Source: Mollicutes bacterium (lineage in GTDB: Bacteria; Bacillota_I; Bacilli_A; Izemoplasmatales; Izemoplasmataceae). From it: a DNA stretch of 46,260 nt. The stretch spans positions 1-46,260 of the forward strand of contig PWMS01000076.1 of assembly GCA_003558105.1 (NCBI GenBank), given 5' to 3'. Below the pieces are notes generated by a model. That model did not search any database, had not been told where the DNA came from, and saw nothing but the letters and a program-made list of their open reading frames with translations. Both the position numbers and the translations under genes were made by a program. This document shows, piece by piece, positions 1,320 through 14,983 of the stretch (within the stretch, counting starts at the first letter, position 1; every line of letters starts with the position of its first letter).

Positions 1320-2396
1320 CTATGATTTGTTATAAAGCTTTTTTTTCACTATATTTGCGTCCAAGAAACGTTTCCGTACTTTTACTTGAACGTTGTTGCC
1401 TCTTTTATCGTGCGGTTTGTCAATCAAAGCCAATGCGACGGCTTTGTTTAACGACGGTGACATATAACCAGTGGTGACATAACCGATTTTTTCATCGTCT
1501 TTATAAACCTCAGCGCCTTCTCTGACGATCCCTTTAGATAAAATCTCAAGACCGACCAAGCGGCGTTTTAGACCCGCTTCTTTTTGTTTAACCAAGGCTT
1601 CTTTACCGATAAAATCGGGTTTATCCATATCGACGGCAAATTTATAGCCCGCTTCTAAGGGCGTTATATCTTGATCAATTTCATGACCATAAAGCGGCAA
1701 GGCCACTTCAAAACGCAGGGTGTCACGGGCCCCAAGGCCACAGGGTTTTAAGTCTTCATGATCGATCAAAAGATGCTGGAACAAGGTTTTAATATCGTGG
1801 TGTTCACCATAAATTTCAAAACCATCTTCGCCGGTATAACCGGTACGGCTTACCAAAAAGGTCATCTCATCAAGCGTCACTTCATCAAAGGTAAAGAAAG
1901 TGAGCTTACTTAAATCATACGCGGTATGGGTTTGTAGCATCGCCTCTGCTTTTGGGCCTTGTAAGGCAATCTCAGCATAACCACTGGATTGATTAAGGAC
2001 ATCGACATCGAAGTGGTTTTGTTTTTTTAACCACGCGAAGTCTTTGTCGGTATTGCTGGCATTCACAACAAGTAAATAGTATTCATCATTGACTTTATAG
2101 ACGAGCAAATCATCGACAACACCCCCGTGATCGTATAACAAAAAGCCATACATTACTTGATTGGCGGTCATCGCTCTTACTTGATTGGTAAAGACTTTGT
2201 CCATAAAATCGGTCGCTTCTTTGCCGATCACATGGATCTCGCCCATATGCGATACATCAAAAACACCAGCAGCTTCTCGAACCGCAAAGTGTTCTTCTTT
2301 AATAGAGGTATATTGAATGGGCATTTCAAAGCCGGCATATTCGACCATTTTAGCGCCCAATTTAAGGTGATTGGAATGCAGTACTGTCTTTTTCAT
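1320..2396 (-). CDS. gcvT: Aminomethyltransferase (glycine cleavage T protein)
   Basis: [32 protein letters not shown]...[11 protein letters not shown]...[21 protein letters not shown]; operon order T-H-PA. Confidence 0.97.
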
Positions 2397-2442
2397 TGTC
2401 GCCTTCCTTTCTAAAGGATTGTGTAAGCCCTAACAATTACTA

Positions 2443-2471
2443 ATTATAGCTTATTATAACTATCATAGCAA
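2443..2471 (-). promoter_or_regulatory. Candidate sigma-A promoter of the gcv operon
   Basis: Minus strand TTGCTA-17 bp-TATAAT, about 47 bp upstream of the gcvT start. Confidence 0.5.
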
Positions 2472-2585
2472 GCCATCTTTGGACAATTTTATAGCTTATA
2501 ATTTGTGTTTTTATTTTTTAAATAAGCGTTCAATCATATCTAATCGTTGCGCTTTTAACAACATGTGCTAAAATGGACATAGGAT

Positions 2586-4256
2586 GTGATGACCATGCCA
2601 AAGAAAAAAAATGATGCCATCTTTATTGCAGGAATCTATACGGTATTTGGGATCCTTTGGATTTTATTTACCGATTGGTTCATTTTACAATTCGATCCTG
2701 GTTTAGGATCATTCGCCTATTTTTCAACCATTAAAGGGTTGATTTTTGTAGTGATTAGTGGGGTTTTCATCTGGTTGGCCATCACGTTACAACAATACCA
2801 CAGAGAAAGAGTCTCCGAACATTTACACGAACAAATTCAAAGCGGGAAAAAGATTGAAAAGACCTTGCGGAAACAAAAAGATTTGCTAATTGCTTCTATC
2901 GAACAATCCCCAATGCCGATAATGTTGCATAGTGAAAACAAACAAATTCTTGCCATCAGCCATAGTTTTACAGAAAAAACCGGCTACCGCTTGCAAGATA
3001 TTCCCACCATCCGTGCTTGGGTCGAAAATGCCTATCCCTACAACCACGATGAACACTACGAACACCTCACACAACTTTACAACATTAAAGGCAAAATCTA
3101 TGAAGGCGAATACCAAATTCAAACCAAGGATGGCGATTTCATCCATTGGTCTTTCCATTCTGCCTTTTTAGGGCGTGACGATAAGGGTCTAAAGAATATT
3201 ATTACCACTGGCATCGATATCACCGATCAAAAGACCAAAGAAAAAGAATTGACCCACAAAAGCTTTCATGATGATTTAACCGGCCTTTACAATCGCCGCT
3301 ACTATAACGAAATGCTTGAACGTTTTGAAAAAATGCGGGATATCGGCATCATCTTAGCCGATATCAATGGCTTAAAACTCGTTAACGATGTCTTTGGCCA
3401 CACCCGTGGCGATGAGTTATTAATTAGTTTTTCACAATACTTAAAAAAACATATGCCAAAAGACAGTATCATTGCCCGCCTAGGCGGCGATGAATTCATC
3501 ATTCTCTTGCCGGATTTCAAACAGTACGATTTAAAGGAGATTGGCGAGCGTATCAAAGCCGATATCGCCAAGCATGCGGGAGAAATCATTCCTTCAGCGG
3601 CGATTGGCTATAGTGAAAGAAAACCTAAAGAAGAACTTACCCTTACCTTTAAACGGGCCGAAAACATGCTTTATAACGATAAAATTCAGGAATACAATAA
3701 ACAGACCGATGCGATTATTGAATCCCTGGTACAAACCCTGTTTACTAAAACCGATGAAACCAAAAACCATATCGACAACTTAAAACGTTTGGCAAAACCC
3801 TTTTATCAAGCCTTGGATCTTTCTAAAGAAAGACAACGTGAACTCGAGTTATTAATTGAACTGCACGATATTGGAAAAGTGAGTATTGAAGCGGATCTCT
3901 TTCATACCAAAGATACCCTCGTCGATGAGCAAATCAAAGAAATTCAAAGGCACAGTGAAATTGGCTATAGGATTGCTAACGCCTTGCCACGGCTTAAAAG
4001 TGTAGCCTATGCCATATTAACCCATCATGAAAATGTCGACGGCAGTGGTTATCCCTTTGGCATCAAAGGCGATGAGATTCCTTTAAGCGCCCGAATATTT
4101 AGAATCATTGAAAGCTATGAGGTCATGACCAAAGATCAAATCTATAAAAAAGCCAAACCCAAAGCCGAAGCACTTGAAGAACTCAAAACTTTAGCGGGTA
4201 AGGCTTATGATCAAGACTTGGTCGATATCTTTGTAGACGCGCAAAAAAAAGCATAA
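2586..4256 (+). CDS. Membrane-anchored PAS-GGDEF-HD-GYP-like signalling protein
   Basis: Two N-terminal hydrophobic segments; PAS region (SIEQSPMPIMLHSENKQILAISHSFTEKTGY); intact GGDEF (RLGGDEFIILL); HD-GYP-like C-terminus (LHDIGKV ... HHENVDGSGYPFGIKGDEI). The start may be one of the ATGs at 2589 or 2595. Confidence 0.88.
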   Translation: MMTMPKKKNDAIFIAGIYTVFGILWILFTDWFILQFDPGLGSFAYFSTIKGLIFVVISGVFIWLAITLQQYHRERVSEHLHEQIQSGKKIEKTLRKQKDLLIASIEQSPMPIMLHSENKQILAISHSFTEKTGYRLQDIPTIRAWVENAYPYNHDEHYEHLTQLYNIKGKIYEGEYQIQTKDGDFIHWSFHSAFLGRDDKGLKNIITTGIDITDQKTKEKELTHKSFHDDLTGLYNRRYYNEMLERFEKMRDIGIILADINGLKLVNDVFGHTRGDELLISFSQYLKKHMPKDSIIARLGGDEFIILLPDFKQYDLKEIGERIKADIAKHAGEIIPSAAIGYSERKPKEELTLTFKRAENMLYNDKIQEYNKQTDAIIESLVQTLFTKTDETKNHIDNLKRLAKPFYQALDLSKERQRELELLIELHDIGKVSIEADLFHTKDTLVDEQIKEIQRHSEIGYRIANALPRLKSVAYAILTHHENVDGSGYPFGIKGDEIPLSARIFRIIESYEVMTKDQIYKKAKPKAEALEELKTLAGKAYDQDLVDIFVDAQKKA

Positions 4257-4261
4257 AAAAA

Positions 4262-4346
4262 TACCAGCAGTCGGAGTCGAACCGACACGGTCTAAAAGAC
4301 CACCAGATTTTGAGTCTAGCGCGTCTACCAATTCCGCCATGCTGGC
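4262..4346 (-). tRNA. tRNA-Leu(CAA)
   Basis: Minus strand GCCAGCATGGCGGAATTGGTAGACGCGCTAGACTCAAAATCTGGTGGTCTTTTAGACCGTGTCGGTTCGACTCCGACTGCTGGTA; long variable arm, anticodon loop CTCAAAA, T-loop TTCGACT; CCA not encoded. Confidence 0.93.
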
Positions 4347-4375
4347 ATCAAATAGTATTATAACAAAAAAATGTA

Positions 4376-4404
4376 AAAAAGAAACCAAATGGTTTCTTTT
4401 TTTT
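4376..4404. terminator. Bidirectional intrinsic terminator
   Basis: AAAAAGAAACCAAATGGTTTCTTTTTTTT: inverted repeat with A/T tracts downstream of the GntR gene. Confidence 0.75.
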
Positions 4405-4419
4405 AAAAAAATATTGGGT

Positions 4420-5136
4420 TTATCTTTCGGCTTTTTTAGCTTCTTCATAAGCCTCATTGTATTCACAAACAAACGTGTCGATGATTCTTTCTAAGTGCCG
4501 AACGGTATAAATACGGGCTAAATCCTGATCTTTATGAACGATCGCATCGTAAATACGGCGGTGTTCATCGATGCGGTCGTGGTGCTGATCAAAGGTTGTT
4601 ACGGCGTTGTATTTGGTCCGCAAGGTCTTTTGTAAAACATCCCATATGATAAGATGGATATTGTGCAAGAAACGGTTTTTAGAATATTTTGAAATCAGTA
4701 AATGAAATTTTTTATCGAAATCAAAAAAATCAACCTCGTTTTCAATCGTTGCCATATCATCGATGATATGACCGAGCTTTTTAACCCCGGCATCGGTGAT
4801 GTTTTTCGCACATAATTGCACGCTGAGTGAATCGAGGGCCCGTCTTATTTCCATCATCTCTAAGTAATCGGTGTTATGCAAGAGTGTGGGGGTAAATACA
4901 GAAAGATAGTTATCGTTTTTGGGTTTGTTGACGTAGGTGCCGCCACCTTTTTTCTTATTGACAAGGCCGATGGCGGATAGTTTTTCAATCCCAGCGCGCA
5001 CACTGACGCGCGAAACATGCAAGATATCGCCAAGCTTTGCCTCAGAAGGCAATCTTTCACCCGGTTTTATCTCTCCGCTAATGACCAATTCTTCAATGTA
5101 ATCATAAACTTTTTGGCTCTTCGATTTTTTTGGCAT
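4420..5136 (-). CDS. GntR family transcriptional regulator, FadR/FCD subfamily
   Basis: N-terminal wHTH (SGEIKPGERLPSEAKLGDILHVSRVSVRAGIEKLSAIGLVNKKKGGGTYV) followed by an alpha-helical FCD-like region. Confidence 0.88.
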   Translation of the reverse strand: MPKKSKSQKVYDYIEELVISGEIKPGERLPSEAKLGDILHVSRVSVRAGIEKLSAIGLVNKKKGGGTYVNKPKNDNYLSVFTPTLLHNTDYLEMMEIRRALDSLSVQLCAKNITDAGVKKLGHIIDDMATIENEVDFFDFDKKFHLLISKYSKNRFLHNIHLIIWDVLQKTLRTKYNAVTTFDQHHDRIDEHRRIYDAIVHKDQDLARIYTVRHLERIIDTFVCEYNEAYEEAKKAER

Positions 5137-6854: not shown

Positions 6855-6884
6855 GAAAAAAGCATCCTTGAGGATGCTTTTTAG
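6855..6884. terminator. Intrinsic terminator at the end of the ABC exporter pair
   Basis: AAAAAAGCATCCTTGAGGATGCTTTTTAG hairpin with flanking A/T tracts. Confidence 0.8.
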
Positions 6885-8698
6885 TTGAGCGACGTTTGTT
6901 TGAATTGATTGGTGTAGAGTTTATAGTAGTGCCGCTTTTCTTTAAGTAAGGTTTCGTGGGTGCCTTGTTCGAGGATTTGCCCGTTTTGTAAAACCAAGAT
7001 CGTATCGCTTGAGACAATCGTTGAAAGACGATGGGCAATGATAAAGGTGGTGCGCCCTTTCATAATCGTTTCGATCGCTTTTTGGATTTTAAATTCGGTG
7101 GTGGTATCGACCGATGAGGTAGCCTCATCTAAGATCAAGATTTTCGGATCGGCGATCAAGGCTCTGGCGAAGCTGATTAATTGTTTTTCACCGACACTTA
7201 AGCGTGCGCCGCCTTCGGCGACTTCGGTATCGTAGCCAGCTTCAAAGGTTTTGATGAAATCATGGGCCCCTACCAAGGTGGCCGCTTCGATAATGTCTTC
7301 ATCGGTCGCATCGAGTTTTCCATAGCGAATGTTGTCGCGGATGGTCCCACTGAATAAGTGCGGACTTTGTAAAACATAGCCAAGATGGGCATGTAGCCAA
7401 TGCATGGAGCGGTTTTTGTAATCGACACCATCGATTAAAATACGCCCATCACTCGGTTCATAAAAGCGACAGATCAAGTTGACGATGGTGCTTTTACCGG
7501 CACCGGTATGGCCAACTAAGGCTACTGAGGTCCCCGCTTTGATATCTAGGTTAAAATGGGTTAAAACCTGTTCCCCACTTTTGTATTTAAAGGTGACATC
7601 ATCGAATTTAACATCGCCTTTGATGGCCTCCCAGTTTTCGGTTTTTGGGTTTTCAATCGTGCCATATTTAGCGATAACCTCAGGTGTATCGGTGATATCG
7701 GGGTTCGCATCGATTAAAGAGACGACCCGCTCAGCACTCGCTTGGGCTTGTTGGATTCTAGCCAAAGTATTGGCCAACTCCATAATCGGATCAAAAAACT
7801 GTCCAACATAAGAGACAAAAACATAAAGCAAGCCTATCGATATCACTTCTTGATAGACGTTGATCCCGCCGTAATAAAAGACCAAGGCTGTGGCGATTGA
7901 GGCGATGAATAAAATAGTGGGAAAATATAGGGACGCAAACATCGCCGCTTTGATAGAATGCTTGCGCATTCTACCCGTCAAATGGTCAAAATCGTTAAAG
8001 TTGCTTTCTTCTAAAACCAAGGTCTTGGTGGTCTTTGCCCCGCCGATGCCTTCGTTAAAGGCGCCGGTGATTCTAGAGTTTTGTTTGCGGATATCGCGAA
8101 AGGCTTTTAAAATCTTTTTTCTAAAGAAATAGCTAACGACCATTAAAGCCGGGACGACAGTCAGGGTGATTAAGGTGAGCTGGACGTTTAAGATAAACAT
8201 CACCACAATCAGTAAAATCATCGTCATGCCACCCCAGGTAATATCGACAAGACCCCAAGAGAGGATATCGGATAATTGGCGGGAATCGGAGGTCATACGG
8301 GCCATAATCCAGCCCGCTGGGGTGCGGTCATAGTAAGCAAAGGGAAGTTCTTGGAGTCGCCTAAAGGCATTTTTGCGGATGATATACGATAAATAGTGTT
8401 GAATTTTTTCCGCAAAATAAATAAAGCAAAAGACCAAGCCAAACATAAAGAACATATAGATAACATAGACGCCGATAAACCAAGGCAATAAGGATAAATC
8501 GCCGGTGGCAATGATCTGGTCGATGCCGTAACGGTTGATCAAAGGGTAGGTGACATCGGCGATGGCCAGTAAAACCGAAAAGAAAACGGTTAACATGACA
8601 TACTTGCGCAAGGGACGCATAAAACTAAAAATGCGTTTCCACGTGCTTAGGTTCAGTGACATATCTTGAAACGTTTCTTCTTCTAAACGATGTTGCAT
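6881..8698 (-). CDS. Heterodimeric ABC multidrug exporter subunit (canonical NBD)
   Basis: Six-TM exporter fold plus NBD: Walker A GHTGAGKST, signature LSVGEKQ, Walker B ILILDEATSSVD, H-loop IIAHRLST. Confidence 0.93.
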   Translation of the reverse strand: MQHRLEEETFQDMSLNLSTWKRIFSFMRPLRKYVMLTVFFSVLLAIADVTYPLINRYGIDQIIATGDLSLLPWFIGVYVIYMFFMFGLVFCFIYFAEKIQHYLSYIIRKNAFRRLQELPFAYYDRTPAGWIMARMTSDSRQLSDILSWGLVDITWGGMTMILLIVVMFILNVQLTLITLTVVPALMVVSYFFRKKILKAFRDIRKQNSRITGAFNEGIGGAKTTKTLVLEESNFNDFDHLTGRMRKHSIKAAMFASLYFPTILFIASIATALVFYYGGINVYQEVISIGLLYVFVSYVGQFFDPIMELANTLARIQQAQASAERVVSLIDANPDITDTPEVIAKYGTIENPKTENWEAIKGDVKFDDVTFKYKSGEQVLTHFNLDIKAGTSVALVGHTGAGKSTIVNLICRFYEPSDGRILIDGVDYKNRSMHWLHAHLGYVLQSPHLFSGTIRDNIRYGKLDATDEDIIEAATLVGAHDFIKTFEAGYDTEVAEGGARLSVGEKQLISFARALIADPKILILDEATSSVDTTTEFKIQKAIETIMKGRTTFIIAHRLSTIVSSDTILVLQNGQILEQGTHETLLKEKRHYYKLYTNQFKQTSLN

Positions 8699-8699
8699 C

Positions 8700-10481
8700 C
8701 TATCCCTCCTCTTTGAATAGTTGTGTTTGTTGTTTGTAGAGTTCGGCGTACAAGCCTTGTTCTTTCAACAAGCTTTCATGGGTACCAAACGCTTTGATTT
8801 CACCATCTTCTAAGACGATGATCTTATCGGCTTCCATCGCGGTGGTGATACGGTGGGTGATGATAAAGACGGTGGTGTGTTGCCAGTGTTCCATCAAGGC
8901 GCGGCGAATTTGCAAGTCGGTCTCCGTATCGACCGCTGAGAGCGAATCATCGAAGATCAAGACCGGTTTTTGATGCAACAACATCCGCGCGATCGCCAAG
9001 CGTTGTTTTTGGCCACCCGATAAGGTGACCCCTCGCTCGCCGACAATCGTTTCATAGCCTTTGTCGAAGTCCGCGATATCGTCATGAACACGGGCGATGC
9101 CCGCGGCACGTTCGATTGCCTCAGGATCGGCATTGCGTTTCATAATACCGATATTTTCATAGACGGTTTTTGAGTATAAGAAAGGTTCTTGTAAAATGAT
9201 ACCGACGTTTTGACGGATGTGTTTTTTGTTGATGTTTTGAATGTTGGTCCCATCGAATAAAATCTCGCCACCCGTCGGTTCTAAGAGTCGAACCATCAAG
9301 TTCATCAAAGTCGATTTCCCGCTGCCGGTTTTACCGATCACCGCTAAGGTTTCCGATGGTTTAACCTCAAAGCTGATATTTTTCAATAACGGTTTGGTAT
9401 CGTCATCAAATTGGAACGTAACGTTCTTAAATTCAATATGACCTTCAATCTTAGGTTGATAAGCCGGATCGTCATGATGTTCACTGCGATGTTGCATGAT
9501 GTCATCGATGCGCTCTAAGGCGACGGTGGTTTTCCCAAAATCACCGATGATGCGCCCAAGTTGACGCAAAGGCCATACCACCATGCCGAGCAAGGTTAAA
9601 AAGGCAATAAATTGACCTGGACTCATCGCGCCCATCACGGTGTAATAGATCCCGAAGGAAGCGGTCAAGGTATATTGCATAAAGATAATAAAGTCGGTTG
9701 AACTCCAAAATAAGGCCATCAGTTTGGTTAGATGCATGCTTTCATCGCGAAACAATGTCGATGTTTCATCAAATTTGTCCATCTCATATTTTTCGTTTTG
9801 AAAGGCTTTAACCACCCGACTGCCCGTGACGTTTTCCTGGACCGCGGTGGTCATTTTCGCTTCGGCTTTCTCAACACGGTCAAAGACGTGTTTGACCCGT
9901 TTAAAATAGATGGCACCCGTGGTAAAGATAATCGGGGCCATCGCTAAAGAAATCAGCGTCATGATCCCGTTCATCAAAGCCATTTGGAATATCGCAAAGC
10001 CAACCAAGAAAAACAAGCGCGTCACATCGACCAATTGTTCACCGATAAAACGCCGGTAGGTATCGACATCGGTGGTGGTCCGTTGGATCAAATCACCGGT
10101 ATCGGCATGGGAGTGATAGCTAAACGATAAGTTTTGAATATGATTGTAAAGCGTGTTGCGCATTCTGTAGGCGACGGTTTCCATAAACGTCGCAAACGCG
10201 ATGCGGTTCAAAAAGACAAATATCAATCGAATCAGTGTAATAAGCACACTGGCCAAAGCGACGATAAGCAATTTATCTGCGACGCTATCGCCCAGTAAGT
10301 AACGGGTGATAAACGTAGGCAGTGCCGATGCTTCTGAGCCGAAAATATGGTCGATGATATGTTGCACAAAAAGGGGCGTTACTGAACGCAAGTATTGCAC
10401 CATCATCAAAAAGATAAATCCGATAATATAAAGATGAAAGTAACCCTTCATCCATGTGGTAAAACGTTGTAATTTCGACAT
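8700..10481 (-). CDS. Heterodimeric ABC multidrug exporter subunit (degenerate NBD, Walker B Asp)
   Basis: Likely start MSKLQRFTTWMKGYFHLY preceded by GAGGTGAACATC; Walker A GKTGSGKST, signature LSGGQKQ, Walker B VLIFDDSLSAVD. Confidence 0.93.
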   Translation of the reverse strand: MSKLQRFTTWMKGYFHLYIIGFIFLMMVQYLRSVTPLFVQHIIDHIFGSEASALPTFITRYLLGDSVADKLLIVALASVLITLIRLIFVFLNRIAFATFMETVAYRMRNTLYNHIQNLSFSYHSHADTGDLIQRTTTDVDTYRRFIGEQLVDVTRLFFLVGFAIFQMALMNGIMTLISLAMAPIIFTTGAIYFKRVKHVFDRVEKAEAKMTTAVQENVTGSRVVKAFQNEKYEMDKFDETSTLFRDESMHLTKLMALFWSSTDFIIFMQYTLTASFGIYYTVMGAMSPGQFIAFLTLLGMVVWPLRQLGRIIGDFGKTTVALERIDDIMQHRSEHHDDPAYQPKIEGHIEFKNVTFQFDDDTKPLLKNISFEVKPSETLAVIGKTGSGKSTLMNLMVRLLEPTGGEILFDGTNIQNINKKHIRQNVGIILQEPFLYSKTVYENIGIMKRNADPEAIERAAGIARVHDDIADFDKGYETIVGERGVTLSGGQKQRLAIARMLLHQKPVLIFDDSLSAVDTETDLQIRRALMEHWQHTTVFIITHRITTAMEADKIIVLEDGEIKAFGTHESLLKEQGLYAELYKQQTQLFKEEG

Positions 10482-10504: not shown

Positions 10505-10541
10505 ATAAAAAAGACCTTAACCCCAAAAGAGGTTAAGGTCT
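10505..10541 (-). terminator. Strong intrinsic terminator/attenuator in the 5' leader of the ABC pair
   Basis: Minus strand AGACCTTAACC-TCTTTTGG-GGTTAAGGTCT-TTTTTA: perfect 11-bp stem, 8-nt loop, U tract; 24 bp upstream of the exporter ATG. Confidence 0.85.
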
Positions 10542-10570
10542 ATATATAACGGCCTTATTTTTACGCATGC

Positions 10571-10645
10571 TTAAAAATGACACATGCCCTCTTCTAATGT
10601 GTGAGTTATGATGACGCATTTTACATCTAGATATTTATTTAACAT
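10571..10645 (-). CDS. Putative leader peptide (24 aa), MLNKYLDVKCVIITHTLEEGMCHF
   Basis: Read directly on the minus strand: AGAGGAAGTGAAACGC-ATG TTA AAT AAA TAT CTA GAT GTA AAA TGC GTC ATC ATA ACT CAC ACA TTA GAA GAG GGC ATG TGT CAT TTT TAA. SD-like AGAGGAAG; followed by the terminator and then the ABC exporter genes. Too short for the ORF track. Confidence 0.6.
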   Translation of the reverse strand: MLNKYLDVKCVIITHTLEEGMCHF

Positions 10646-10760
10646 GCGTTTCACTTCCTCTGTCAAGGTTTTTTCCTTTACACATTAAAAGGCTATCACA
10701 AGGGTTTTATAAAGTAAAGAGATTTTTACAAAAAAGTTAAAAAAGTACGATTATTTAGCT

Positions 10761-12620
10761 TTATTGTTCAAATTGGGCTTTGTAAAGACCGTAATAAAAG
10801 CCTTTTTCTTCCAATAAAGTCTCATGATTCCCCGACTCAATTAACGCGCCGTTGTGGATTACTAGAATTTTATCGGCAGCTTTGATCGTTTGGAGGCGAT
10901 GGGCAATTACGATCGATGTTCGGCCTTGCATCAGGGTTTTCATGCTGTCTTGTATCTTAGCTTCAGTGCGGGTATCGACGTTTGAGGTAGCTTCATCCAA
11001 GATCAATAAATCAGGATTGTTGAGCAAGGTTCTAGCAATACTGATCAATTGTCGTTCGCCTTGGGAGAAGTTTTGACCGCCCTCATAAATCTCGGTTTGA
11101 TAACCCTTCGGCAGTTTTGAAATAAAATCATGGGCGTTGGCCATTTTAGCGGCTTCGATGGCTTGCGCATCGTGCGCTTTTAGATCGCCGTAGCGGATGT
11201 TTTCCAAGACGGTCCCTTTAAATAGATGGGTATCTTGTAAGACGACGCCGATTCTTTTTCTTAAGGCATCAATTTTATAGTCTTTAATCGGCGTCTCATC
11301 AATGAGAATCTCGCCGCTTTGCACATCGTAAAAGCGATTGATGAGTTTGATGGTGGTGGTCTTACCCCCACCAGTAGGCCCGACGATGGCGATGACTTGG
11401 CCGCTTTTGGCGGAAAAGGTGATGTCTTTTAGAATTAGTTCGTGGCTATCGTAAGAAAAATCGACATGCCTAAACTCAATTGATCCACTAAATTTATCGA
11501 TCGCTTTGGTGCCATCTAAGGCATATTCGTTGTCCGCATCGATCAGTTCAAAGACCCGTTCTGCCCCGGCGATACCTTGCATTAAGGTATTGAAGAGTTG
11601 CGCTAAGTTGGCGATGGGCATCATAAACTGACGGGAATATTGTCCCACCCCTGCGATTTGACCAATCGTCACAAGCGCATCATAGCGCAAGTATAAAGCG
11701 GCGCCTACCGCCACGACGGTTAAAAACATCAAGTTGTTCATGAAGTGGATAAAGGGCCAGACAAGCCCACTGTAAAATTGAGCGCTAAAGCCCGCTTCTT
11801 TCAATTTATCGTTTTCCAATGAAAATTCTTCGATAAAGGGGGTTTCTTGGTTATAGAGTTTAACGGTTTTAAGACCACTGATGTTTTCTTCAATGATGCC
11901 GTTTAGTTTGGCCAAGTGGGTTTGTTGGGCTTTAAAGCCTTTGCGGGTCTTCTTCGAGATTTTCACGGTAAAAAGTACCATGATAGGCATAAATACGATG
12001 ACAATCAACCCTAAGGCCCAGTTGAGGTAAAACATCAAGACCAAAGAACCGACGATCACAATCGAAGAGTTAATGACTTCTAATATTACTTGTCCTAAAG
12101 AGTTGCTGATCAATTCTAAGTCGTTAGAAAGCCTAGAGACGATATCCCCAGCATCCATTTTATCGTAGTGTTTCATCGGGGCTTTCATCAATTGACCAAA
12201 GGCATCCGAACGGATTTTTTTAACGACACGTTGCGAGATTCTCACCATGATAAAACGCGATACGAAGCGCACCAAACTATTGAATAAAGCCAGGAAAATA
12301 ATGATGACGGCAATCCGGTAGACGGGGGTAAAATCAAGAAAATAGATATATTCATCGATCGCACGGGCAAATAAAATCGGCACAAGCAACGCCAAACTAG
12401 TGGCGATAAACAACATGATAAATATCAAAAAGACGGCGTATTTATAAACGCCCATATAACCAAGCAAACGCTTTAAGGTTTCTTTAATTTGCTTGGGCTG
12501 GGCCAAACCAGGCGTATTATGCCCACCGCCGGTTGGTCGGTTTCTAGAATCGTTTAAGTCAATTTCTTTTCTCAGCTTTTCATTGAGGGCTTGCTTGTTG
12601 AGGATTTTAGTTTTGGACAT
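10761..12620 (-). CDS. Heterodimeric ABC multidrug exporter subunit (canonical NBD)
   Basis: Exporter TMD plus NBD: GPTGGGKTT, FSQGERQ, LLILDEATSNVD, IVIAHRLQT. Confidence 0.92.
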   Translation of the reverse strand: MSKTKILNKQALNEKLRKEIDLNDSRNRPTGGGHNTPGLAQPKQIKETLKRLLGYMGVYKYAVFLIFIMLFIATSLALLVPILFARAIDEYIYFLDFTPVYRIAVIIIFLALFNSLVRFVSRFIMVRISQRVVKKIRSDAFGQLMKAPMKHYDKMDAGDIVSRLSNDLELISNSLGQVILEVINSSIVIVGSLVLMFYLNWALGLIVIVFMPIMVLFTVKISKKTRKGFKAQQTHLAKLNGIIEENISGLKTVKLYNQETPFIEEFSLENDKLKEAGFSAQFYSGLVWPFIHFMNNLMFLTVVAVGAALYLRYDALVTIGQIAGVGQYSRQFMMPIANLAQLFNTLMQGIAGAERVFELIDADNEYALDGTKAIDKFSGSIEFRHVDFSYDSHELILKDITFSAKSGQVIAIVGPTGGGKTTTIKLINRFYDVQSGEILIDETPIKDYKIDALRKRIGVVLQDTHLFKGTVLENIRYGDLKAHDAQAIEAAKMANAHDFISKLPKGYQTEIYEGGQNFSQGERQLISIARTLLNNPDLLILDEATSNVDTRTEAKIQDSMKTLMQGRTSIVIAHRLQTIKAADKILVIHNGALIESGNHETLLEEKGFYYGLYKAQFEQ

Positions 12621-14373
12621 CGTAAGCACCCCCTAAGCCGAGTTGGCTGTTGGCGATCTCACGATAAACTTGTGAGGTTTTTAATAAATCATCGTGGGTC
12701 CCAAACCCATCGACTTTACCATCGTTGGCAAAGACCAAGATTTTATCGAGTTTTTTAACCGTGGCGACTTTTTGAGAGATCAAAAGCAACGTCGGTTGAT
12801 AATCCAAGGCATCGATGTGTTGTAAGATTTTTTGTTCACTGGCCGCATCCACGGCACTGGTCGCATCATCAAAAATCAAGATCTTGGGTTTTTTAATCAT
12901 CGCACGGGCGATGGAAAGACGTTGTTTTTGGCCCCCGGAGAGATTGGTGCCTTTCGGCCGTATCAGGTAGTTATAACCATCCGCTTTTTCCTGAATAAAA
13001 TCGTACAATAAAGCGCTTTTTGAGGCTTTATCCAGCGCGTTAATATCCGCATCTTTCAAACCTTGCATCATATTGGTGGCCATAGAACCGCTAAAGATAT
13101 TGGCGTTTTGTGTCACAAACCCTACTTGCTCGCGCAAGGATGGAATATCAAAATCTTTAACGTTGATCTCATCGATGAGAATCCGGCCGCGCTTGACATC
13201 GTATAGACGCGGTATGAGATAAACAAAGGTACTCTTACCACTGCCTGTAGAACCAATCACACCGATTTTTTCACCAGGATTAATCGTCAGCTTGACATCT
13301 TTTAAAACCCAGTTCCCGTTTTCACCATAACCAAAGCTAACATCATCAAACATAATCCTACCTGCAATGGTGGGTTGTTGCCCTTTCACAGGATTGGTTA
13401 AATCAATCGTGGTATTAAAGATCTCATTGATACGGGCCGCAGACACATTGGCACGAGATAAAAAGATCATCACCATCGCAAACATCATCAAGCCGATGAG
13501 AATTTGCATGCTATAGGAATTAAAGGCCATGATTAAACCGACTTGCGGCACACCGTTTTGCATTAGTTGTCCTTGGGTTAAATAGTATGTACCGACGATT
13601 AAAATTCCCGCCAGACCCAAATTGAAGATAAAGTTTATCACGGGATCGGCAAACGCCATCACCGTCTCTGCGGCGGTGTTGACTTTTCGGTAATTTTCGT
13701 TGGTATTTTCATAGCGATTGGTCTCATAATCCTGTGAGACAAAGGATTTTATAACCTGGGGTGCGTTGGCGTTTTCAAGCGCGACGTTGTTAAGCTCATC
13801 AAGCGCTTTTTGTACCTTTTTAAAGCGTGGGTAGGCAAAATACATGATAATGAGAATCGAGATGATTAAAAGCGGTAAGGTGACATAAAACACTTGTGAT
13901 AGTAAAATTGAGGTTCTTAGCGCTAAAAACACGCCCACCATCATCATCAGGGGCGCTCTTAATACAATTCTAAGCATCATCGTAAAAAACATCTCAACGC
14001 GCATGACATCGTTGGTCGCGTTGGTAATCAAGCGGCTTTGTTTTAAATCATCGACATTTTTAAACGACAAGGTTTGGATGCGTTTAAAGACATCTAAGCG
14101 CAGATTCGCCGTGGCGTATTGAGAAACCTTTTGTGAAGTATAGGTGTTGATAATACCACTTACAATGCCAAAAAACGCTAGTGCTAACATGATTCCCCCG
14201 GTATGTAACACCGAATTGAAATCACCCGCGGGCAGTGCCACATCGATGATATCGATGATTAAAAATGGAATATAAAAGCTGACAAACACTTGTACAAACA
14301 TCGTCAGCGCCGCAATGAGGACATAAAATTTAAACGGTTTGATATAACCGATGACACCAAATATATCACGCAT
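12607..14373 (-). CDS. Heterodimeric ABC multidrug exporter subunit (degenerate NBD, Walker B Asp and switch-loop Gln)
   Basis: Likely start MRDIFGVIGYIKPFKFYV; GSTGSGKST, LSGGQKQ, ILIFDDATSAVD; H-loop position reads LLLISQKVATV. Confidence 0.92.
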   Translation of the reverse strand: MRDIFGVIGYIKPFKFYVLIAALTMFVQVFVSFYIPFLIIDIIDVALPAGDFNSVLHTGGIMLALAFFGIVSGIINTYTSQKVSQYATANLRLDVFKRIQTLSFKNVDDLKQSRLITNATNDVMRVEMFFTMMLRIVLRAPLMMMVGVFLALRTSILLSQVFYVTLPLLIISILIIMYFAYPRFKKVQKALDELNNVALENANAPQVIKSFVSQDYETNRYENTNENYRKVNTAAETVMAFADPVINFIFNLGLAGILIVGTYYLTQGQLMQNGVPQVGLIMAFNSYSMQILIGLMMFAMVMIFLSRANVSAARINEIFNTTIDLTNPVKGQQPTIAGRIMFDDVSFGYGENGNWVLKDVKLTINPGEKIGVIGSTGSGKSTFVYLIPRLYDVKRGRILIDEINVKDFDIPSLREQVGFVTQNANIFSGSMATNMMQGLKDADINALDKASKSALLYDFIQEKADGYNYLIRPKGTNLSGGQKQRLSIARAMIKKPKILIFDDATSAVDAASEQKILQHIDALDYQPTLLLISQKVATVKKLDKILVFANDGKVDGFGTHDDLLKTSQVYREIANSQLGLGGAYDVQN

Positions 14374-14983
14374 ACAGTTCCCTCGCTCCCTTGTATAAAA
14401 CATCAACAAAGAAACGATAGTCTTGATAAGCTTGCTTGTAGGTTTCACTTTCATTGATGATCTTATGTATTTTTTGGAATTTAATGTGTTGAATCCAGTG
14501 CATCAGCTTTAGAATTTTATCGGCTTCAAGGGACGATAAGACCTTCAAATCTAAAATATTCAAAAGCTTTTGGAAAAATTGTTCTTGGCGCTCTTTCATA
14601 AATTCAAGTGAGATATTTATCATTTTACGTTCTTTAAAAAACTTTCCCAGTAAAATAATATGATCAGAGGTACTTAAAAAGGCATAATCACTGGCAAAAC
14701 TTTCCAAAGCCCAAGCATGCAAAGTATGCTTCTTTGTCGTCTTTAGCACCTTTTCAAGATGCTTGGTTTCATAAGCTTCTAAAGTTATCACAAATAAATG
14801 TTGGTAAAGGTCCTCTAGCGATGTGAAATATTGATAAAAGCTGCCTCTGGGAATATCGGCAGCTTTGATGATCATCGCGATATTAACATTGGTATAGGGG
14901 ACGTTTAAAAAAACCTGTTTGGCCTTTTGTTCAATGTGTGATTGTTTGCTTGTAGACAAGCGATAAAAAGTATCCTTAGGCAT
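14366..14983 (-). CDS. TetR family transcriptional regulator of the downstream ABC exporter pair
   Basis: N-terminal TetR HTH (AKQVFLNVPYTNVNIAMIIKAADIPRGSFYQYFTSLEDLYQHL); overlaps the start of the ABC gene. Confidence 0.88.
   Translation of the reverse strand: MPKDTFYRLSTSKQSHIEQKAKQVFLNVPYTNVNIAMIIKAADIPRGSFYQYFTSLEDLYQHLFVITLEAYETKHLEKVLKTTKKHTLHAWALESFASDYAFLSTSDHIILLGKFFKERKMINISLEFMKERQEQFFQKLLNILDLKVLSSLEADKILKLMHWIQHIKFQKIHKIINESETYKQAYQDYRFFVDVLYKGARELYA

What the first reader, a model, noticed from the sequence alone, without database searches (positions are those of the whole stretch)
10505..10645. Unlisted 24-aa leader ORF followed by a strong terminator ahead of an ABC multidrug exporter pair (candidate ribosome-mediated attenuator)
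Seen: the ORF MLNKYLDVKCVIITHTLEEGMCHF has an SD-like AGAGGAAG. It is followed 29 nt later by a perfect 11-bp terminator stem with U tract, then the exporter genes. The leader contains mutually exclusive inverted repeats: ACGCAT at the start codon can pair with ATGCGT inside the ORF or after its stop, ACACAT pairs with ATGTGT across the ORF end, and TAAGG (10550s) can pair with CCTTA in the terminator 5' arm. Established: Bacillus BmrB-BmrC-BmrD and several antibiotic-resistance genes use a translated leader plus terminator that is read through when a drug stalls ribosomes. This is the only one of the three exporter pairs here lacking an adjacent regulator gene.
Basis: partly seen in the sequence, partly recalled or inferred. 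Interest (0 to 1): 0.7.

Follow-up and report, generated by a model that had tools for sequence, protein, structure and literature searches.

The report
Drug-sensing leader before efflux-pump genes
A short translated leader followed by a transcription stop signal sits in front of a pair of drug-pump genes; relatives carry the same device in front of a ribosome-protection gene plus the same pumps, so it is very probably a switch that turns resistance genes on when ribosomes are blocked.

Summary
In detail: a 24-codon ORF with a Shine-Dalgarno (SD) sequence (10645-10571, minus strand) is followed after 29 nt by a 13-bp terminator (10541-10512). Only 30 nt separate the terminator from the exporter ATG (10481), so there is no room for a downstream promoter. 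The same unit (own promoter, SD plus short ORF, terminator) occurs in 40 leaders from 15 genera of this uncultured family, beside different upstream genes. It lies directly before this exporter pair in nine genera. In the other six it lies before an ABC-F 'ribosomal protection-like' gene whose next gene is this exporter, and once before a GNAT acetyltransferase. Partner-swap tests across genera support two helices beyond the terminator: the SD paired with the 3' part of the same ORF (z -5.3), and the last ~25 nt of the ORF paired with the terminator's 5' arm, i.e. an antiterminator (z -3.8). Best reading: a ribosome-mediated transcription attenuator, working like vmlR, cplR, msrD and bmrBCD. 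The window's copy is diverged and supports the helices only weakly on its own (p 0.02-0.03). No inducer or RNA data exist. Interesting as an unannotated leader family; the mechanism itself is a known kind.

The parts
10690..10718 (-). predicted promoter TTTACT-N17-TAGCCT with TGTGA before the second hexamer; predicted transcription start near 10683
   Evidence: same element in 36 of 39 leaders, 0.35 expected from shuffles, pattern derived from these sequences
10654..10661 (-). Shine-Dalgarno of the leader ORF (AGAGGAAG)
10571..10645 (-). leader ORF, 24 codons plus stop
   Evidence: SD plus ORF in 39/39 related leaders vs 2.6% of shuffles
10641..10649 (-). segment 1, start-codon region ACGCATGTT: pairs with 10572-10563 in the predicted fold (seals the start codon)
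   Evidence: SD/start region vs ORF end -15.1 kcal/mol, p 0.03
10563..10572 (-). segment 2, partner of the start-codon region (AAGCATGCGT), at the stop codon
10578..10594 (-). segment 2', end of the ORF: proposed antiterminator strand that pairs with the terminator 5' arm
   Evidence: -11.5 kcal/mol, p 0.023; family-level swap test p 0.0005
10512..10541 (-). intrinsic terminator stem-loop, 13 bp, -20.3 kcal/mol; U tract 10512-10507
8700..10481 (-). ABC exporter half 1 (degenerate Walker B, VLVFDDS), controlled gene
6881..8698 (-). ABC exporter half 2, controlled gene

Best explanation
The stretch 10718-10506 (minus strand) is the 5' leader of the exporter operon 10481-6881 and acts as a ribosome-mediated transcription attenuator. 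Shown by sequence comparison: its own promoter, a short ORF with SD, a terminator 30 nt before the exporter, an SD-sealing helix and an antiterminator helix that co-vary in the family. Inferred: when ribosomes translate the leader freely they cover the end of the ORF, so the terminator forms and transcription stops. When a ribosome-blocking drug holds a ribosome at the start or early in the ORF, the end of the ORF stays free, pairs with the terminator's 5' arm as it emerges, and RNA polymerase reads into the exporter genes. In sister genera the same leader switches on an ABC-F ribosome-protection protein together with the exporter.
For: Unit conserved in 40 leaders of 15 genera with different upstream genes. 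In six genera it precedes an ABC-F that passes NCBIfam 'ribosomal protection-like ABC-F' (428.5 bits, cut-off 380), followed by the exporter. The terminator-to-gene gap leaves no room for another promoter (30 nt here, median 31). Genus-level partner swap: SD with ORF end z -5.3, p 0.0002, 14/15 genera; ORF end with terminator 5' arm z -3.8, p 0.0005, 13/15 genera; controls SD with 5' arm p 0.59, ORF end with 3' arm p 0.49, early ORF p 0.95. A position scan puts both peaks at the ORF end. Modelled before the 3' arm is made, the 5' arm pairs with the ORF end with mean probability 0.40 with a ribosome held at the start, 0.28 with none, 0.03 with one at the stop. Precedents: bmrBCD (PMC4191407), vmlR (PMC9226507), cplR (PMC10201436), msrD (PMC10314930).
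Against: No RNA, ribosome-footprint or drug data. The window's copy is diverged: the family model R1 does not find it, and its SD alone does not pair better with the ORF end than chance (p 0.39). In the fold model the window differs little between no ribosome and a ribosome at the start (0.30 vs 0.31), and keeps 0.17 with one at the stop. A stall about ten codons before the stop is not better than free RNA (mean 0.16 vs 0.28), so the stall site is unknown. Several g5 and g16 leaders show no antiterminator in the model. Antiterminator energies are modest (mean about -6 kcal/mol).
Confidence: 0.74

Rival explanations
1. The hairpin is simply the terminator of the upstream TetR/exporter operon, and the short ORF is incidental.
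For: The upstream exporter gene ends at 10761 on the same strand with no other strong terminator before 10541.
Against: The unit is kept when the upstream gene is different, e.g. a 2-oxoacid dehydrogenase-type gene or a GGDEF-like gene. SD plus ORF in 39/39 leaders vs 2.6% of shuffles. A promoter-like element lies between the upstream gene and the hairpin in 36/39, and only 30 nt separate hairpin and exporter, so the exporter must be read through the hairpin.
Confidence: 0.08
2. A transcription attenuator, but the signal is not a stalled ribosome: a protein, a metabolite or a tRNA decides between terminator and antiterminator.
For: Well-folded RNA with alternative helices; T-boxes and riboswitches are common in Bacillota (general knowledge).
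Against: No Rfam family reaches its cut-off in the window or in six relatives; best sub-threshold hit is PyrR, 25.7 bits against 54. The conserved ORF whose SD takes part in the structure would be unexplained. No run of one amino-acid codon.
Confidence: 0.1
3. The 24-codon ORF makes a functional small protein, or this is a small RNA gene with its own terminator; the exporter is driven by weak read-through.
For: Own promoter and terminator; part of the peptide (F-F-V-M and P-S) recurs in several genera.
Against: Peptide sequence differs widely between genera while the architecture is kept; the CATCAC segment stays, in another reading frame, in L134, L138 and L149, so RNA pairing and not peptide is conserved there.
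Confidence: 0.06

Closest known systems
vmlR leader of Bacillus subtilis (ABC-F; PMC9226507)
   Same: uORF inside a 5' anti-antiterminator hairpin, alternative antiterminator, intrinsic terminator before an ABC-F resistance gene; T-rich pause motif
   Different: vmlR uORF is three codons (MIN) with a single-stranded SD; here 16-36 codons, and the SD itself is paired with the end of the ORF
cplR leader of Clostridioides difficile (PMC10201436)
   Same: 5' hairpin sequesters the uORF; terminator between uORF and ABC-F gene
   Different: three-codon uORF (MRI); also translational attenuation through the gene's SD, not examined here
bmrBCD of B. subtilis (PMC4191407)
   Same: translated leader plus terminator, antiterminator and anti-antiterminator in front of a heterodimeric multidrug ABC exporter
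   Different: terminator lies inside the bmrB ORF, here 29 nt after the leader's stop; the window's exporter halves are no closer to YheI/YheH than to TM287/288, TmrAB or Sav1866; no ABC-F link seen in the passages read
msrDL-msrD of streptococci (PMC10314930)
   Same: drug-stalled leader prevents a Rho-independent terminator before an ABC-F gene; leader ends in a hydrophobic-F-M motif reminiscent of FFVM/IFCM here (a lead only)
   Different: six-residue leader MYLIFM; the stalled ribosome itself blocks the terminator
patAB attenuator of Streptococcus pneumoniae (PMC4319486)
   Same: intrinsic terminator in the leader of an ABC exporter gene pair
   Different: no leader-ORF mechanism is reported in the abstract

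Membership tests
ribosome-mediated transcription attenuators of resistance genes | promoter upstream of leader and terminator, none between terminator and gene | tested here: met
   36/39 promoter matches; 30 nt gap in the window, median 31; pattern derived from the same set
ribosome-mediated transcription attenuators of resistance genes | leader ORF with SD | tested here: met
   39/39 against 2.6% of shuffles
ribosome-mediated transcription attenuators of resistance genes | intrinsic terminator between leader ORF and gene | tested here: met
ribosome-mediated transcription attenuators of resistance genes | antiterminator exclusive with the terminator and overlapped by the translating ribosome | tested here: met
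   family-level partner swap z -3.8, peak at ORF end; for the window alone p 0.023
ribosome-mediated transcription attenuators of resistance genes | anti-antiterminator / uORF-sequestering hairpin | tested here: inconclusive
   SD with ORF-end helix strongly supported in the family (z -5.3); in the window only with the start-codon region, p 0.03; that it favours termination is inferred
ribosome-mediated transcription attenuators of resistance genes | controls a resistance gene | tested here: met
   by homology only: heterodimeric ABC exporter; ABC-F above curated cut-off in six genera (one sequence scanned)
ribosome-mediated transcription attenuators of resistance genes | translation-dependent induction by ribosome-targeting drugs | not testable with these tools
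   no expression data
BmrCD (YheI/YheH) exporters | closest solved relative is BmrCD | tested here: not met
   YheI 274.5 bits, below Sav1866, TmrB and TM288; YheH 346 bits, below TmrA and TM288
T-box and other Rfam leaders | match at or above gathering score | tested here: not met

The most novel reading that the evidence does not exclude
A distinct leader class in which the leader ORF's own Shine-Dalgarno is sealed by the end of the same ORF, so that a drug-held ribosome opens the seal, keeps the leader translated and favours the antiterminator. One such switch jointly controls a ribosome-protection ABC-F and a multidrug exporter, and is retained by the exporter alone in lineages without the ABC-F.
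Probability: 0.35. Interest if true: 0.65.

Novelty: new member of a known kind. Interest (0 to 1): 0.5.

Why it matters
Ribosome-mediated attenuators of resistance genes are known from a few cultured Bacillota. Here the same logic is visible across a whole uncultured family, with enough divergence to test its helices by co-evolution. It links an otherwise unassigned exporter pair to ribosome-targeting drugs through the ABC-F operon in sister genera, and shows that such a leader can serve different resistance-type genes (ABC-F, exporter, acetyltransferase). The leader matches no Rfam family and its ORF falls below usual gene-calling size, so annotation would miss it.

Tried and rejected
SD with terminator 5' arm as antiterminator: often the single best duplex but no own-partner preference (p 0.59), so put down to purine/pyrimidine bias. 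ORF end with terminator 3' arm: no preference (p 0.49). Column-wise covariation on alignment A2: helix well paired (80%) but not above shuffles, because that subset is too conserved. Covariance model R1: strong hits (above 50 bits) only in this family; the weaker hits examined (in G003 and G054, and in two genomes of other families) were ordinary gene starts (L182, L181, L184, L185), and it misses the window's diverged copy. The window genome has no close ABC-F orthologue (best 32% identity), though it is only about 83% complete.

Full report
What is there. On the minus strand the window has a 24-codon ORF (10645-10571) with an SD 8 nt upstream, a 13-bp terminator (10541-10512) starting 29 nt after its stop, and the first exporter gene (ATG 10481) 30 nt further on. 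The predicted leader RNA folds better than all 200 shuffles (z -3.9). The exporter is a heterodimeric ABC exporter of the TM287/288, TmrAB, BmrCD type, not specifically BmrCD. It is the only one of three such pairs here without a neighbouring TetR or MarR gene.

Relatives. Orthologues of exporter half 1 were found in 44 of 49 genomes of the family. Directly upstream of it, nine genera have the same arrangement as the window: a promoter (TTTACA-like, 17 nt, extended second hexamer), a short ORF with SD, a terminator, then the gene. The gene further upstream differs between genera (exporter in the window's genus, a 2-oxoacid dehydrogenase-type gene, or a GGDEF-like gene by eye), so the unit belongs to what follows it. 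In six other genera the exporter is preceded by an ABC-F gene, and the same promoter, leader and terminator sit in front of that ABC-F. The ABC-F passes the NCBIfam cut-off for ribosomal protection-like ABC-F. One genome has a second copy of the leader before a 975-residue protein with an N-terminal GNAT domain. In all, 40 leaders from 15 genera were collected. In another family of the order (f3) the exporter lacks the leader.

Is it more than chance? An SD followed by an ORF of at least 16 codons occurs in 39 of 39 leaders against 2.6% of dinucleotide shuffles. The promoter pattern occurs in 36 of 39 against 0.35 expected; the pattern was read off these sequences, so that number is descriptive.

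Which helices matter. For each leader the pairing of two segments was compared with the pairing obtained when one segment is taken from another genus, averaged by genus and permuted over genera. The terminator is the positive control (z -8.2). The SD region prefers its own ORF end (z -5.3, 14 of 15 genera). The ORF end prefers its own terminator 5' arm (z -3.8, p 0.0005, 13 of 15 genera). The SD with the 5' arm, the ORF end with the 3' arm, and the early ORF with the 5' arm show no preference. The ORF-end segment was chosen after a first look, but a position scan puts the peaks at the same place (SD partner in the window starting 30 nt before the stop, antiterminator in windows starting 25-15 nt before it; a further 5'-arm signal lies just after the stop). 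In at least three leaders the conserved CATCAC of the ORF end lies in another reading frame, so it is kept as RNA. Genera are not independent samples, so the p-values are approximate.

How it probably works. Before the terminator's 3' arm is made, the 5' arm pairs with the ORF end with mean probability 0.40 if a ribosome sits at the start codon, 0.28 with no ribosome, and 0.03 if a ribosome sits at the stop. The last is expected because that ribosome covers the segment. So a drug that holds ribosomes at or near the start should give read-through, and normal translation should give termination. This is the logic reported for vmlR (PMC9226507) and, in part, cplR (PMC10201436) and bmrBCD (PMC4191407). 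A stall at the conserved F-F-V-M codons, which resemble the MsrDL end MYLIFM (PMC10314930), is an alternative that the folding model does not favour. T-rich TTNTTT motifs, which act as NusG pause sites in vmlR and msrD, occur in 21 of 39 leader ORFs against 6.5 expected; the window lacks one.

The window's own copy. It is one of the diverged members. The family covariance model misses it. Its antiterminator (10594-10578 with 10541 onward) gives -11.5 kcal/mol, p 0.023, and its SD/start region pairs with the ORF end at -15.1 kcal/mol, p 0.03. These are weak alone; the case rests on position, architecture and synteny with the rest of the family.

Known or new. The mechanism is a known kind. The leader family, its long ORF with a self-sealed SD, and its shared use by ABC-F and exporter were not found in the papers read or in Rfam; the literature held is open-access only.

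Noticed in passing
L180:1439-1770 and 1742-4666 (genome G041, contig 31): A second full copy of the leader (peptide MIKRMNIQMTYAISNNAFFVMQIPSQLIGL) precedes a 975-residue protein whose N-terminus is a GNAT acetyltransferase domain; a possible new resistance-type gene under the same switch.
   Followed up: partly
L134-L145, L149, L166, L183: ABC-F (ribosomal protection-like, OptrA among the next-best models) lies between a 2-oxoacid dehydrogenase-type gene and the exporter pair in six genera, a conserved ABC-F/exporter operon.
   Followed up: yes
L006, L007, L008, L113, L116-L118 leader ORFs: Inside the leader ORF a short hairpin is followed by a run of T (e.g. GTGTAGCAAGTACAC AAATTTTTT), looking like an RNA polymerase pause hairpin.
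   Followed up: no
L014 (G006): Exporter preceded by a TetR-like gene plus an 11-codon ORF (MVPIWIRHCHA) and a terminator; may be a degenerate or independent leader.
   Followed up: no
between leader stop and terminator in L137-L145, L149: A stem-loop of quite different sequence in each species lies between leader ORF and terminator; the region just after the stop also shows some own-partner preference for the terminator 5' arm (z -3.5 at +10).
   Followed up: partly
window 10761-14983: The neighbouring exporter pair overlaps its TetR gene (14366-14983 with 12607-14454 by the mechanical ORF list), suggesting translational coupling or a later true start.
   Followed up: no
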